Source of the DNA: Sediminicoccus rosea
GTDB taxonomy: Bacteria > Pseudomonadota > Alphaproteobacteria > Acetobacterales > Acetobacteraceae
NCBI RefSeq assembly: GCF_033547095.1
Contig: NZ_CP137852.1
Coordinates: 2,845,501 to 2,909,500 of the forward strand
Direction: 5' to 3'
DNA: 64,000 bases
Below, one piece after another: positions 4,315 through 22,750 of this stretch. The notes beneath the pieces are model-generated. The model worked only from the letters and a program-made list of their open reading frames with translations, ran no database searches and was not told the origin of the DNA. Every line of letters begins with the position of its first letter. The first letter of the stretch is position 1. The translations under genes were made by a program, and so were the position numbers.

Positions 4315-5079
4315 ATGAGCCAAGCCGCCGATCTGATCCTTGCCGCCTGGAAGGCGAAGCGCGTCCTCGCCCCCCTCGGCGCCGCCGCGCCGCGCGACGT
4401 GGCCGAGGGCTACCGCGTGCAGCGCGAGGTGGCCGAGGCCCAGGGCGCCGTCCCGCCAGCCGGCTTCAAGATCGGCGCGACCACGAAGCAGATGCAGGCC
4501 TATCTCGGCCTCAGCCACCCGGCAGCCGGCTTCGTGCCGCGCTCGAGCCTGAACGCCGATGGCTTCACCGCGCCCTTCGCCGATTTCATCGCGGTCGGCG
4601 TCGAATGCGAGGTGGGTGTGCGCCTCGGCCGTGACTTGCCCTTCGGCCCGACGAGCCGCGCCGAAGCCGAGGCCGCCGTGGCCGAGGTCTTTCCCGCCAT
4701 CGAGATCGTCGAGAAGCGCTATGGCGATCTCGCCGAGCTCGGCACGCCGACGCTGATCGCGGATCAGGTCTTCCATGCCTCCGGCGTGCTCGGCCGCCCG
4801 GCGGCGGATTGGCGCAAGCTCGACCTCGGCGCCATGCGTGGCGAGCTGTTCGTGGACGGCGCCTCGAAGGGCGGTGGCCATGGGCGGGACCTGCTGGGCC
4901 ACCCGATGGAGGCGCTGGCCTGGCTCGCGGGCTCGGGTGCGGCCGAGGTCTTCGGCGGCCTGAAGGCGGGCCAGGTGGTGTGGCTCGGCTCCGTCACGCC
5001 GCCCATCTGGCTGGACGGCCCCTGCGAGGTGCGAGTGGCCTTCGAGGGGCTGGGCGAGGTCCGCACGCGCTTCACCTGA
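4315..5079 (+). CDS. 2-keto-4-pentenoate hydratase (MhpD family)
   Basis: This 254-residue protein belongs to the fumarylacetoacetate hydrolase superfamily, hydratase branch. Typical stretches are AGFKIGATTKQMQAYLG (residues 49-65), the acidic metal-site segment VGVECEVGVRLGRDL and VFPAIEIVEKRY. Such enzymes hydrate 2-hydroxypenta-2,4-dienoate-type products of aromatic meta cleavage. No other meta-cleavage genes are adjacent, so the substrate is unknown. It follows rlmB by 4 bases, a spacing that suggests co-transcription rather than a functional link. Confidence 0.8.
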   Translation: MSQAADLILAAWKAKRVLAPLGAAAPRDVAEGYRVQREVAEAQGAVPPAGFKIGATTKQMQAYLGLSHPAAGFVPRSSLNADGFTAPFADFIAVGVECEVGVRLGRDLPFGPTSRAEAEAAVAEVFPAIEIVEKRYGDLAELGTPTLIADQVFHASGVLGRPAADWRKLDLGAMRGELFVDGASKGGGHGRDLLGHPMEALAWLAGSGAAEVFGGLKAGQVVWLGSVTPPIWLDGPCEVRVAFEGLGEVRTRFT

Positions 5080-18920: not shown

Positions 18921-19397
18921 TCAGTGGCGATGATGGCCCGGCGAGCGCGCGCCCGCCGCCTGCACGGCGAGCTGGATGGTCACCTCGCCCGCCCGCTCGA
19001 AGCGCAGCGTGACCGGGATGGTCTGGCCGGCGTTCATGGGCTGGGTCAGGCCGATCAGCATCAGGTGCAGGCCGCCGGGCTGGAGCGAAACCTCACCATT
19101 GGCGGGCACGGGGATGTCGTTCACGGGGCGCATGCGCATCACATCGCCGTCGCGGACATGGGTGTGCAGCTCCATGCGGCCCGCCGCCGGCGAACTGGCC
19201 GAGACGAGCCTGTCCGGCGTCGCGCCCGTGTTGCGGATGACGAGGAAGCCGCCGCCCTGCATCCCCTGCCCCGCCGCGCGGGTCCAGGGGTTCACGATGC
19301 GGAGCGGGCCGAGCTCGGTCACGCGGTCCTGCGCGAGGGCGGGGCCGGCCAGCGGCAGCAGGGCGGTGGCCAGCAGAAGGTGGCGACGATGGGTCAT
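18921..19397 (-). CDS. PCu(A)C-family periplasmic copper chaperone
   Basis: This 158-residue protein has a signal peptide (cleavage expected after LAQ near residue 23). The family copper site H-x10-M-x21-H-x-M is complete: His78, Met89, His111, Met113, with Met75 nearby. PCu(A)C proteins bind Cu(I) in the periplasm and deliver it, for example, to the CuA centre of cytochrome c oxidase. The tail ends PGHHRH, offering an additional metal ligand patch. It closes the minus-strand operon containing the TonB receptor and YcnI-like protein, pointing to copper supply rather than detoxification. Confidence 0.93.
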   Translation of the reverse strand: MTHRRHLLLATALLPLAGPALAQDRVTELGPLRIVNPWTRAAGQGMQGGGFLVIRNTGATPDRLVSASSPAAGRMELHTHVRDGDVMRMRPVNDIPVPANGEVSLQPGGLHLMLIGLTQPMNAGQTIPVTLRFERAGEVTIQLAVQAAGARSPGHHRH

Positions 19398-19420
19398 GGT
19401 TTGGGTTCCTGAGTTGGGGT

Positions 19421-19729
19421 TCAGAAAGATGCTGGGCGGGGCTGTTCGGCCCGCGCCTCGATCCGGCCGGCGACGCGCGCGAGCCGTGCCGCGTCGCGCG
19501 CCGCGGCCGCCGGGTCGCCCTCGGCGCAGATGCGCCGAAGGCTGTTAAGCTGGGATTGCAGCGAGGCCGCCTCCTGCGCGCGGGCGAGTGGCAGGGCGGC
19601 TTCCACCGCCTCGGCGGCGCCAGTGGTGGCGGCGCTGCAGATCTCGGTCATCGCGCGTTCCATCTCGTCAGGGTCGCAGGCGATGGCGGGCGTGGCGAGC
19701 AGCATCGCCATGGCGAGCAGCGCGCGCAT
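19421..19729 (-). CDS. Small periplasmic protein with three cysteines
   Basis: This 102-residue product begins with a signal peptide (MRALLAMAMLLATPAIA), so Cys18 would be the first mature residue or close to it. Cys31 and Cys68 follow in a helical, Ala-rich body. The Ala-Cys junction is not a clear lipobox (no Leu at -3), so an ordinary secreted protein is more likely than a lipoprotein. It starts inside the YcnI stop (ATGA overlap) and is followed 23 bases later by PCu(A)C. I do not recognise the family; position and cysteines suggest a copper-related partner. Confidence 0.7.
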   Translation of the reverse strand: MRALLAMAMLLATPAIACDPDEMERAMTEICSAATTGAAEAVEAALPLARAQEAASLQSQLNSLRRICAEGDPAAAARDAARLARVAGRIEARAEQPRPASF

Positions 19730-20235
19730 CAGCGGGCACCGAGCCGCAGCATCGGCGCGGGGCTGCGCGGGCGAGGCTGGCCGGGCTCGGCCAGTTCTAC
19801 CCAGGCATGCTGCGCGCCGCCCTCGCAGCGCTGCACCACGGGGAAGACCAGGGTCGTGCCGGGCTGGTCGGGCGCGCGGATCATCATGATGAACTCGTCA
19901 TAATGGGCATCCGGCAGCGGGCCGCCGCGCCAAGCGATGCTGGCCGGCGCCTCGCGCACCAGGCCATGTCCGCTCGAGACCGGGCGCGCCAGGGGGCGCC
20001 TCTCGATGGCGATGTCCCAGCCGGGCTTGGGCATCGGGCGCGCCATGGAAACCCCCTCGGGCAACGCCACCTCGATCGCGATGGTGGCGGCCGTGCCGCA
20101 GCCATGGCCGACGCGAAAGGCGAGCCTCGCGTAGGAATGCGCGGCGACCTCCGCCGGTTCGATCACGACATGCGCCTTGGCTGGCGTCGCCCAGGCCAGG
20201 GCCGGGACCAGCATCAGGGTGATGAAGCGCTTCAT
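19729..20235 (-). CDS. YcnI/DUF1775-family copper-binding protein
   Basis: Start 20235 (MKRFITLMLVPALAWATPAKA) has AAAGGA nine bases upstream; an ATG three codons earlier abuts that site and is less likely. The 168-residue precursor should be cleaved after Ala21, leaving His22 (HVVIEPAEV) as the new N-terminus. In the characterised B. subtilis YcnI this mature N-terminal His forms a Cu(II) site. The body holds the DUF1775 features GWDIAIERR, a central Trp, and YDEFIMMIRAPDQPGT. No C-terminal membrane anchor is visible. Fourteen bases separate it from the TonB receptor gene. Confidence 0.88.
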   Translation of the reverse strand: MKRFITLMLVPALAWATPAKAHVVIEPAEVAAHSYARLAFRVGHGCGTAATIAIEVALPEGVSMARPMPKPGWDIAIERRPLARPVSSGHGLVREAPASIAWRGGPLPDAHYDEFIMMIRAPDQPGTTLVFPVVQRCEGGAQHAWVELAEPGQPRPRSPAPMLRLGAR

Positions 20236-20249
20236 TGGCGTCATTCCTT

Positions 20250-22304
20250 TCAGAAGCGGTAGAGCATGCCGGCATAGGCGGTGGTGCCGATGCCGGGCTC
20301 GTAGAGCGCGGGATTGCCGAGCGCGATGGGCGTGACCGAGGCGGAGCTGATGAAGCGGCTGTTCGCCAGGTTGCGCCCCTCGAGGAAGACGCCGAGGCGG
20401 CCGTCCATCAGGTCCGCACCGCCGCGCAGGCCGAGCAGCGTGTAGCTGTCGGTCCGGCGGGTATTGGCATTGTCCACGTAGAAGCCCTCGGGCACCCAAT
20501 CCACATTGGGCGCGATCCACCAGCCCGACGGATGGCGATAACGTGCCTCCGCCCGCAGCACATGCGGCGGCACGCCGGGGAGCTGGTTGTTGCGGAAGAT
20601 CGGGTCGTTGTCGAAGAAGAAATCGCTGAAGGTGTAGGCGCCGCGCAGCGTGATCGAATCCTGCGCCGTGAACACGTTGCGCCCCGCGACGTAGCTGGCC
20701 GCGAGCTCCACGCCCTGGTGCACCGTCTTGTCCGCGTTGCGGGCGAAGCTGGTGCCCGGCTGTTGGCCGGCAAAGAGCTGAATCTCGTTGTCCAGCCAGC
20801 TGTAGTAGTAAGCGCCGTCGAAGGTGAAGTCGCCCACCGTGCCGCGCGTGCCGATCTCGGCCGTGATGGCGCGTTGCGGCGCCAGCAGGCGGAAGCCGCC
20901 CAGCGGCACCAGGGCCACGAGGTCCGAAAGCGTCGGCGGCTCGGTAGACCAGGTGACGTTCGCATAGGCCTGGACATTGGGCGTGGCCTGCCAGAGCAGG
21001 CCGGCGCGCGGATTGAGGAAGTTCCATTCGCCGCTGCCACTGAGCGCCGCGTTCAGCCGGTTCTCGCTGCGCCGCACCGCCTGCCCGCCCGACAGCCCGG
21101 CCACGAGCGCAAGGTCGGGCAGCACATAGAAGCTGTTCTCGACATAGGCGTCGGTGGTGGAGGCGGTATCCCAGGAGGCGAAGGTCTGCGCGCCGCGCAC
21201 GCCGCTCAGGTTCACGAAGCGGCGATTGTCATTGGTGCCCCAGGCCGCGTTGACGCCGGCCACCAGCCGGTTGCGGAAGCCGCCCAGCGTGCCGTCCCAG
21301 GTGACGCGCCCGAAGAGGTTGAAGTCGTTGGTGTGGTTGTCGATGTACTGGAAGATCGGATGGTCGAGCTGCCGCTGGACGAAGCTACCGCCCATCTCCA
21401 CCAGCGTCTCCGCATTGGGGCGGATCGCGGTGATCGTCCCCAGCCGGAAGCTCTCGATATTGCGCTGGTAGTTGAGCTGGACATTGGTCGGGTTGGCCAG
21501 CCGCGGCGTCTGCGTCGCCGAATTGCGCGTCACCGTGCCCGGGATATCCTGCTGGATGGCGTTGTAGGTGAAGAAGACGCGCGTCTCGGCATTCTCGGCC
21601 CAGCGATAGGCGCCGTTCGAGTTCATCCGGCCGGCACTGCCCGAGGAATGGTTGCGCCAGCCATCCTGGTTCAGCATCGTGCCGCTGACCCAGCCATCCC
21701 AGGGCCCGCTGACGCCGCCCATCTGGGTGTTGCCACGCACGAAGCCCCGGCTGCCGCCCTCCAGGCGGAAGGTGACCCCCTGCCCTTCCTGCTGCCGCGC
21801 CGTGGGCGTCACGAAGTTGATCGCGCCGCCCAGGGTGTTGGCGCCGAGCGCGAAGCCATTGCCGCCGCGAAACACCTCGGCGCGCAGGAAGCTCGTCGGG
21901 TCCAGCTCCTGCAGGTCACCGCTGCCATCGGCCTGGTTGATCGGGATGCCGTCCTGGAAGACGCGCACGCCGCGCAGGTGGAAGTTGCGCGCGATGCCCG
22001 AGCCGCGGATCGAAAGGCGCGAATCCTCGCCCCATTTCGGCTGCGCGAAGACGCCGGGCGTGAACTCGAACATGTCCCGCATGGAGAGCACGCCCGGGCG
22101 GTCCCGGAATTCGGAGGCGGGCACCACCGTGTTGTTGCCCGGGCTGAGCCAGAGCCTGAGCCGCGCCTCGTTGTTGCTCTCGGAGGTGAGCGGCGGCGGG
22201 GCTGCGGTGACCACGGTATCCGGGTGGGCGCGGATTTCGGTCTGCGCGAGGGCGGGCGTGGCCAAAAGGGGCGCGCTCAGCAGCGCGCGACGCAAGAGGG
22301 ACAT
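20250..22304 (-). CDS. TonB-dependent outer-membrane receptor, probably for copper or a copper complex
   Basis: Start 22304 (MSLLRRALLSAPLLATPALA) gives a signal peptide and 684 residues. A TonB-box-like DTVVTA lies near the mature N-terminus, followed by the plug domain (RDMFEFTPGVFAQ, SIRGSGIARNF, EVFRGGNGFALGANTLGGAINFV) and a beta-barrel ending in the aromatic YAGMLYRF. The family imports scarce ligands using TonB energy. Ligand specificity is inferred from neighbours (YcnI, PCu(A)C, DUF2946), all linked to copper. A siderophore-type ligand remains possible because the plug resembles ferric-complex receptors. Confidence 0.9.
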   Translation of the reverse strand: MSLLRRALLSAPLLATPALAQTEIRAHPDTVVTAAPPPLTSESNNEARLRLWLSPGNNTVVPASEFRDRPGVLSMRDMFEFTPGVFAQPKWGEDSRLSIRGSGIARNFHLRGVRVFQDGIPINQADGSGDLQELDPTSFLRAEVFRGGNGFALGANTLGGAINFVTPTARQQEGQGVTFRLEGGSRGFVRGNTQMGGVSGPWDGWVSGTMLNQDGWRNHSSGSAGRMNSNGAYRWAENAETRVFFTYNAIQQDIPGTVTRNSATQTPRLANPTNVQLNYQRNIESFRLGTITAIRPNAETLVEMGGSFVQRQLDHPIFQYIDNHTNDFNLFGRVTWDGTLGGFRNRLVAGVNAAWGTNDNRRFVNLSGVRGAQTFASWDTASTTDAYVENSFYVLPDLALVAGLSGGQAVRRSENRLNAALSGSGEWNFLNPRAGLLWQATPNVQAYANVTWSTEPPTLSDLVALVPLGGFRLLAPQRAITAEIGTRGTVGDFTFDGAYYYSWLDNEIQLFAGQQPGTSFARNADKTVHQGVELAASYVAGRNVFTAQDSITLRGAYTFSDFFFDNDPIFRNNQLPGVPPHVLRAEARYRHPSGWWIAPNVDWVPEGFYVDNANTRRTDSYTLLGLRGGADLMDGRLGVFLEGRNLANSRFISSASVTPIALGNPALYEPGIGTTAYAGMLYRF

Positions 22305-22369
22305 GGATGGATTCCGGCAAGGCGTGAACAGGCGCGGCACCCGGTTGGCCGGGCGCGCGGGCGGGGTGT

Positions 22370-22750
22370 TCAGGCGATGACGGGTGGCGCGCGGGTCGTG
22401 TAGGGCGGCGCGCGGGCGGGCGGCAGCCAGCCATCGCCGGGCGCCATGGCCCAGCTGACGGCCTCGCCCAGCCAGGCGGGGGTGGAGAGCAGCGGCGGCG
22501 CGGGCAGGTCCACCGCCGGCAGGCCGTGGCAGGCCGGGCAGAAGCCGCTCTCGCCCCCCGGCGCGTGGTCTGCCGCGGGCTCGCCATTCGCATCGAGGCG
22601 GATGGTCCGCATACCCTCGGTCGAGCAGATCTCGACCAGCATCCCCTCGCCCGCGCCCATGCCGCGCAGACAATGCGCGACCGCCACGCCCGACTGCAGG
22701 AGCAGCACGGCCGCGAGGAGGCGGATCAACAGGGATCGCAAGGATGACAC
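22370..22750 (-). CDS. DUF2946-like secreted protein with Cys/His sites
   Basis: A GTG at 22750 gives 126 residues beginning SSLRSLLIRLLAAVLLLQSG, a plausible signal sequence; a TTG at 22786 is an alternative that adds 12 residues. The mature part holds AHCLRGMG, a Cys in VEICSTEGM and the pair FCPACHGLP, resembling the DUF2946 family (CPVCH-type motif). Several DUF2946 proteins sit beside copper TonB receptors. The Pro-rich C-terminus has no further motif. It lies 66 bases upstream of the TonB receptor in the same direction. Start codon is the main uncertainty. Confidence 0.7.
   Translation of the reverse strand: MSSLRSLLIRLLAAVLLLQSGVAVAHCLRGMGAGEGMLVEICSTEGMRTIRLDANGEPAADHAPGGESGFCPACHGLPAVDLPAPPLLSTPAWLGEAVSWAMAPGDGWLPPARAPPYTTRAPPVIA

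What the first reader, a model, noticed from the sequence alone, without database searches (positions are those of the whole stretch)
18921..22750. Probable copper-acquisition operon: DUF2946 protein, TonB receptor, YcnI, small Cys protein, PCu(A)C
Five genes on the minus strand, with gaps or overlaps from -1 to 66 bases, join an outer-membrane TonB receptor to periplasmic copper-binding families with intact ligands (His22 after the YcnI cleavage site; H78/M89/H111/M113 in PCu(A)C). YcnI and PCu(A)C bind copper by established work; TonB-type copper import is known but poorly characterised. Inference: one import route from outer membrane to oxidase maturation.
Basis: partly seen in the sequence, partly recalled or inferred. 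Interest (0 to 1): 0.62.

Follow-up and report, generated by a model that had tools for sequence, protein, structure and literature searches.

The report
Copper-sensing leader heads copper-uptake operon
These five genes are a copper-uptake operon of a kind already known from related bacteria, and the first gene is probably not a transport protein but a short copper-sensing leader peptide that shuts the operon off when copper is plentiful; the one undescribed part is a small protein with three conserved cysteines.

Summary
The five minus-strand genes are real and conserved as a block in the genus. The copper reading is right, but the first gene was misread. It is a DUF2946 protein of CruR type: CPAC (CXXC), exactly 45 residues, RAPP, three residues, stop. 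In Bordetella pertussis CruR is a copper-responsive upstream ORF: without copper a ribosome stalls at RAPP and the operon is transcribed; with copper Rho terminates it (PMC9426467). That paper already lists TonB receptors, YcnI and PCuAC behind CruR, and Bradyrhizobium's copper-starvation operon (pcuABCDE) as CruR-headed. So this is a new member of a known kind. The receptor family sits behind a CruR-type leader in nearly every relative with enough flank. It is not OprC-like (no Cys) and lacks the key PqqU residues. Two His (H109, H315) are almost invariant across the class; their spacing matches the predicted copper site of Caulobacter TccA (His116/His321), a receptor needed for aa3 oxidase. 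Least known is the 102-residue protein with three invariant cysteines: no Pfam or PDB relative, predicted three-helix bundle, found almost only in CruR-type copper operons. Copper response, Rho termination and copper binding are inferred, not shown here.

The parts
22370..22750 (-). cruR: DUF2946 leader ORF (GTG start, 126 aa); hydrophobic N-terminus, CPAC (CXXC), 45-residue spacer, RAPP, VIA, stop; a second RAPP seven residues upstream of the first
   Evidence: Pfam PF11162 above cut-off; CXXC-45-RAPP-3 pattern unique in the window, 0 hits in 60 simulated 64-kb sequences; spacing 44-45 in the genus members that match
22340..22424 (-). C-rich, G-poor stretch over the RAPP codons, stop codon and start of the intergenic region: candidate Rho-utilisation region
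   Evidence: highest C-minus-G 78-nt window of the operon strand (0.36 at 22420); this level is reached by about 0.01% of all windows on both strands of the 64 kb; partly explained by Pro/Arg codons
22305..22369 (-). 65-nt gap between cruR and the receptor; no structure hiding the receptor start codon beyond shuffled controls
20250..22304 (-). TonB-dependent receptor of the PcuB type (684 aa); invariant H109 in the plug and H315/Q319 at the beta7-beta8 hairpin; no Cys
   Evidence: Pfam; model pTM 0.83; conservation; neighbours
19729..20235 (-). YcnI/DUF1775 periplasmic copper-binding protein (PcuD type); H22 becomes N-terminal after the predicted cleavage, W145
   Evidence: Pfam E 1e-42
19421..19729 (-). 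small exported protein (102 aa), invariant C18, C31, C68; predicted three-helix bundle; undescribed family
   Evidence: no Pfam/NCBIfam/PDB match; alignment; model pLDDT 88; neighbours
18921..19397 (-). PCu(A)C copper chaperone (PcuC type), H78-x10-M89-x21-H111-x-M113
   Evidence: Pfam E 4e-40; PDB relatives; ligands

Best explanation
A copper-starvation operon under a CruR-type leader. When copper is scarce, a ribosome translating the leader stalls at the C-terminal RAPP motif and covers the Rho-loading region, so RNA polymerase reads on. When copper is present it is sensed by the CXXC of the nascent leader, the stall is released and Rho ends transcription before the receptor gene. The expressed genes bring copper, probably as a small chelate, across the outer membrane (receptor, with H109 and H315 as likely copper contacts), and hold it in the periplasm (YcnI, small three-Cys protein, PCuAC) for the CuA site of cytochrome oxidase. 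Shown here: gene families, motifs, spacing, conservation and synteny. Inferred from characterised relatives: copper sensing, stalling, Rho termination, transport, delivery. Unknown: the role of the three-Cys protein.
For: CruR signature: PF11162 hit; CXXC-45-RAPP-3, no other hit in the window and none in simulated controls. [quoted passage not shown] Spacing 43-48 in 82 distinct relatives. Of 80 receptor relatives, 73 have a full CruR motif in the locus, 71 immediately before the receptor; six of the other seven still show the C-terminal motif. Peak C>G stretch on the leader's 3' end, as in Bordetella. YcnI and PCuAC downstream. One CuA-type COX2 and two Sco genes in the genome. TccA: aa3 oxidase activity lost without it, restored by copper, not iron; predicted site His116/His321 (PMC12617631); a His pair with the same spacing is conserved here.
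Against: Gap to the receptor is 65 nt, against 162 in Bordetella, leaving less room for a separate Rho stop point. The C-rich stretch is partly a by-product of Pro/Arg codons. PcuB deletion in Bradyrhizobium gave no phenotype. DUF2946 relatives can work the other way (CutF is needed for copper-dependent expression). No expression, copper or binding data exist for this organism. Membership of TccA in this receptor family was not tested by alignment, because its sequence could not be fetched.
Confidence: 0.8

Rival explanations
1. The leader works like Rhodobacter CutF: copper favours translation of the next gene by opening a stem-loop over its ribosome-binding site, so the operon would be copper-induced.
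For: CutF belongs to the DUF2946-like proteins, has paired Cys and a proline-rich C-terminus and lies in an alphaproteobacterium (PMC9973294).
Against: CXXC and RAPP here, not the CXXXC of CutF; downstream genes are acquisition genes, not a multicopper oxidase; the receptor start region is no more structured than shuffled controls in the window (0.66 unpaired against 0.60) and in most of 26 relatives.
Confidence: 0.08
2. The receptor imports an iron siderophore or another nutrient such as PQQ and shares the operon by chance or for a mixed metal response.
For: Nearest solved structures are the PQQ transporter PqqU/YncD (Z 36) and then the ferric citrate receptor FecA (Z 33).
Against: Identity to PqqU is about 23%; its key residues R304 and R365 are S and N here; the receptor family stays behind a CruR-type leader in two orders; TccA loss is rescued by copper and not iron (PMC12617631).
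Confidence: 0.08
3. The DUF2946 product is itself a periplasmic copper carrier and not a regulatory leader.
For: Hydrophobic N-terminus, CXXC and a semi-conserved Cys; this was the first proposal for CutF (PMC8456105).
Against: The fixed 45-residue spacing and a RAPP motif right before the stop are what an arrest peptide needs; in Bordetella a frameshift that removed the export signal kept the regulation and the protein was not detected (PMC9426467).
Confidence: 0.06

Closest known systems
Bradyrhizobium japonicum pcuABCDE operon (Serventi 2012, read here only as cited in PMC9426467, PMC8424229 and PMC12617631)
   Same: Bradyrhizobium loci fetched here have CruR leader, same receptor family (44-46% identity), PCuAC and YcnI in one operon; Roy 2022 states that the copper-starvation operon is CruR-headed
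   Different: Gene order differs (PCuAC before YcnI in Bradyrhizobium); no three-Cys gene was found there by profile; PcuE, the membrane protein, has no counterpart in this operon
Bordetella pertussis cruR-crtA-bp2921
   Same: DUF2946 leader with CXXC, 45-residue spacing, RAPP; TonB-dependent copper receptor second
   Different: Intergenic region 162 nt against 65; PepSY_TM third gene instead of YcnI/three-Cys/PCuAC; receptor not shown to be of the CrtA cluster
Caulobacter vibrioides TccA (CCNA_03615)
   Same: Receptor feeding copper to aa3 oxidase; neighbours PCuAC (PccA) and Sco1; predicted copper site of two His 205 residues apart, as in this receptor family (203-208)
   Different: Homology to the window receptor not tested directly; gene context not identical
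Rhodobacter capsulatus CutF-CutO-CutG
   Same: DUF2946-like exported leader controlling a copper operon
   Different: CXXXC, stem-loop over the Shine-Dalgarno, positive effect of copper, multicopper oxidase downstream
Pseudomonas aeruginosa OprC
   Same: TonB-dependent copper receptor; Roy 2022 notes a cruR homolog before oprC
   Different: Only a general TBDT fold match (Z 31); window receptor has no Cys and OprC does not appear among its sequence matches

Membership tests
CruR (DUF2946 copper-responsive uORF) | PF11162 match above gathering cut-off | tested here: met
   34.1 bits against 23.7
CruR (DUF2946 copper-responsive uORF) | CXXC motif | tested here: met
   CPAC; CXXC in the genus relatives
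CruR (DUF2946 copper-responsive uORF) | RAPP near the C-terminus, 45 +/- 2 residues after CXXC | tested here: met
   45 residues, RAPP then VIA-stop
CruR (DUF2946 copper-responsive uORF) | first gene of a copper-related operon | tested here: met
   TBDT, YcnI, PCuAC follow on the same strand; caveat: the upstream gene (LigT family) is also on the minus strand, 32 nt away, and no promoter was predicted
CruR (DUF2946 copper-responsive uORF) | C>G bubble at the end of the leader | tested here: met
   peak of the operon strand, with the codon-bias caveat
CruR (DUF2946 copper-responsive uORF) | Rho-dependent termination prevented by stalling; copper repression | not testable with these tools
   needs expression work
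CutF | CXXXC motif | tested here: not met
   CPAC is CXXC
CutF | stem-loop covering the next gene's Shine-Dalgarno | tested here: inconclusive
   accessibility not below shuffles in the window; a subset of relatives slightly below
PcuB-type receptor family (defined here by conserved neighbours and residues) | CruR leader upstream, H109 and H315 equivalents | tested here: met
TccA | sequence homology to CCNA_03615 | not tested
CrtA | CrtA cluster and site residues E337, Q356, H358, R395, W265, Y130 | not tested
   CrtA sequence not available here
OprC | copper site with Cys/Met ligands (own knowledge) | tested here: not met
   receptor contains no Cys (sequence); no OprC sequence match at E up to 1
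PqqU | Y/F/W99, R304 and R365 (criterion of PMC12124388) | tested here: not met
   F108 present, but R304 -> S307 and R365 -> N360
PCu(A)C | H-x10-M-x21-H-x-M ligands | tested here: met
   H78, M89, H111, M113
YcnI | N-terminal His after cleavage, Trp, Glu | tested here: inconclusive
   H22 and W145 present; Glu equivalent not established

The most novel reading that the evidence does not exclude
The small three-Cys protein is a new periplasmic copper-handling protein. A three-helix bundle would place C31 and C68 opposite each other on neighbouring helices, with C18 at or next to the mature N-terminus, as a Cu(I) site or a thiol redox partner that hands copper to PCuAC. In the same operons an invariant His pair between plug and barrel forms the copper gate of a receptor family that unites PcuB, TccA and this protein.
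Probability: 0.35. Interest if true: 0.5.

Novelty: new member of a known kind. Interest (0 to 1): 0.33.

Why it matters
It turns a vague 'probable copper operon' into a specific, testable regulatory prediction: off with copper through a nascent-peptide sensor. It adds a well-conserved group in which CruR action outside Bordetella could be tested. It also names an undescribed, copper-linked protein family and a pair of receptor residues to mutate, on the open question of how copper crosses the outer membrane and reaches the oxidase.

Tried and rejected
Profile and fold searches for the three-Cys protein gave nothing useful: Pfam, NCBIfam, PDB by sequence; best Foldseek hit E 0.56, ordinary helical bundles. 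The Bradyrhizobium paper PMC3493923 is not held. A receptor-start stem-loop of CutF type was looked for and not found. No sigma-70 promoter and no intrinsic terminator on the operon strand were predicted; this says little in such a GC-rich genome. CrtA's structure was not seen among the listed PDB hits for the receptor. Considered and rejected: the receptor as an OprC-type or PqqU-type transporter, and the leader as CutF-type (see membership tests).

Full report
Observation. The window lies in an alphaproteobacterial genome (G000, 5.1 Mb); the closest named relatives are Roseococcus and other Acetobacteraceae. The five minus-strand ORFs are present and fall into DUF2946, TonB receptor, DUF1775/YcnI, no family, and PCuAC. 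The block is conserved in the genus with the same flanking genes; the leader was found in 18 of 20 further genus genomes.

The first gene. DUF2946 is not merely a domain of unknown function. Roy et al. 2022 (PMC9426467) showed in Bordetella pertussis that a DUF2946 protein, CruR, is an upstream ORF that represses its operon when copper is present: its CXXC senses copper, its C-terminal RAPP arrests the ribosome, and Rho terminates transcription once the arrest is released. The window protein has CPAC, 45 residues, RAPP, three residues and stop, the same spacing and tail as Bordetella CruR. The pattern occurs once in the window and never in 60 simulated sequences of the same length and dinucleotide make-up. 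In the genus-level relatives the spacing is 45 with hardly an exception; 82 distinct relatives range from 43 to 48. The most C-rich, G-poor 78-nt stretch of the operon strand lies on the RAPP codons and stop, where Bordetella has its C>G bubble; proline and arginine codons contribute to this.

Variation in the leader. Acetobacteraceae leaders carry a doublet, for example ARAPPYATRAPPVTA: a second RAPP seven residues upstream. In several Roseomonas-type loci the downstream copy has become TGPP while the upstream copy is intact; Bradyrhizobium leaders have only the downstream copy. In four loci (L118, L119, L121, L124) the doublet is intact but the second Cys of CXXC is gone (CCDL or CCDM). These are natural variants for testing which copy arrests and whether the Cys pair is needed.

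The receptor. A scan of 84,980 species genomes gave 80 loci from Acetobacteraceae and from Bradyrhizobium, Rhodopseudomonas, Afipia, Nitrobacter and relatives. A CruR motif is found in 73 loci, immediately before the receptor in 71. Of the other seven, six still show the leader's C-terminus (two cut by the contig end, four with altered Cys) and one contig starts too close to judge. Bradyrhizobium loci read CruR, receptor, PCuAC, YcnI, which is the pcuABCDE arrangement; Roy et al. state that this copper-starvation operon is headed by a cruR homolog.

What the receptor may bind. The predicted structure (pTM 0.83) is closest to PqqU/YncD, then FecA, with OprC lower. The key PQQ-binding residues R304 and R365 of PqqU are replaced, and there is no cysteine, so neither PQQ nor an OprC-type site is supported. 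H109 in the plug and H315 at the beta7-beta8 hairpin are invariant in 25 of 25 family members, where YncD has Gly and Ile, and present in 28 and 29 of 29 further members from across the class, 203-208 residues apart. In Caulobacter, TccA, a receptor required for aa3 oxidase activity and rescued by copper but not iron, was modelled with a copper site of His116 and His321, 205 apart; PccA (a PCuAC) and Sco1 are encoded nearby (PMC12617631). Contrary evidence: deletion of PcuB in Bradyrhizobium gave no phenotype.

The small three-Cys protein. C18, C31 and C68 are invariant in two alignments of 17 and 15 sequences, with ACD at the predicted cleavage site, a CxxGDP turn and an RIEAR-like end. It was found in 17 of 200 family genomes, two of those matches weak, and in only two genomes outside the family among 385 class genomes. 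Of twelve loci outside the genus, eleven have a CruR-type leader upstream; the partner genes are YcnI or a YNCE-like beta-propeller, and usually PCuAC and sometimes Sco. The model is a three-helix bundle (pLDDT 88) without a significant fold match. A copper or thiol role is inference.

Modularity. In relatives the leader stays while its cargo changes: leader-PCuAC only (L034), a different receptor (L036), a 39% identical receptor (L040), and a larger paralogous operon of leader, propeller, Sco, three-Cys, PCuAC, MbnP, MbnH, then a second leader, receptor and a DJ-1/PfpI protein (L050, L056). The window's own genome has a second leader-PCuAC-Sco operon (G000:C1:3426436-3427843), one CuA-type COX2 and two Sco genes.

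Verdict. A new member of a known kind: a CruR-controlled copper acquisition operon of the pcu type. The undescribed three-Cys protein and the conserved receptor His pair are the parts worth bench work.

Noticed in passing
G000:C1:3426436-3427843 (L180:2440-3733): Second CruR-type leader in the same genome (CPLC, 46 residues, RAPP, six residues) heading PCuAC and Sco genes; a third PCuAC lies about 5 kb away beside a gene that looks like a P-type ATPase.
   Followed up: partly
L118, L119, L121, L124, upstream of position 5001: Leaders with an intact RAPP doublet but with CCDL/CCDM in place of CXXC: possible copper-blind or altered sensors.
   Followed up: partly
L105-L126 (Roseomonas-type loci): In several leaders the downstream RAPP is TGPP and the upstream copy, 38 residues after CXXC, stays RAPP or RGPP: the arrest motif may have shifted by seven residues.
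   Followed up: partly
L050:2053-10827 and L056:1824-10617: Large operon with two CruR-type leaders, YNCE-like propeller, Sco, three-Cys protein, PCuAC, MbnP, MbnH, a FoxA-like receptor and a DJ-1/PfpI protein.
   Followed up: partly
L036:4569-5129: 186-residue protein without Pfam family between a different receptor and PCuAC behind a CruR leader.
   Followed up: no
window 22370-22673: The receptor reading frame stays open upstream through most of cruR (807-aa ORF from a TTG), a GC-rich frame coincidence that could mislead automatic annotation.
   Followed up: no
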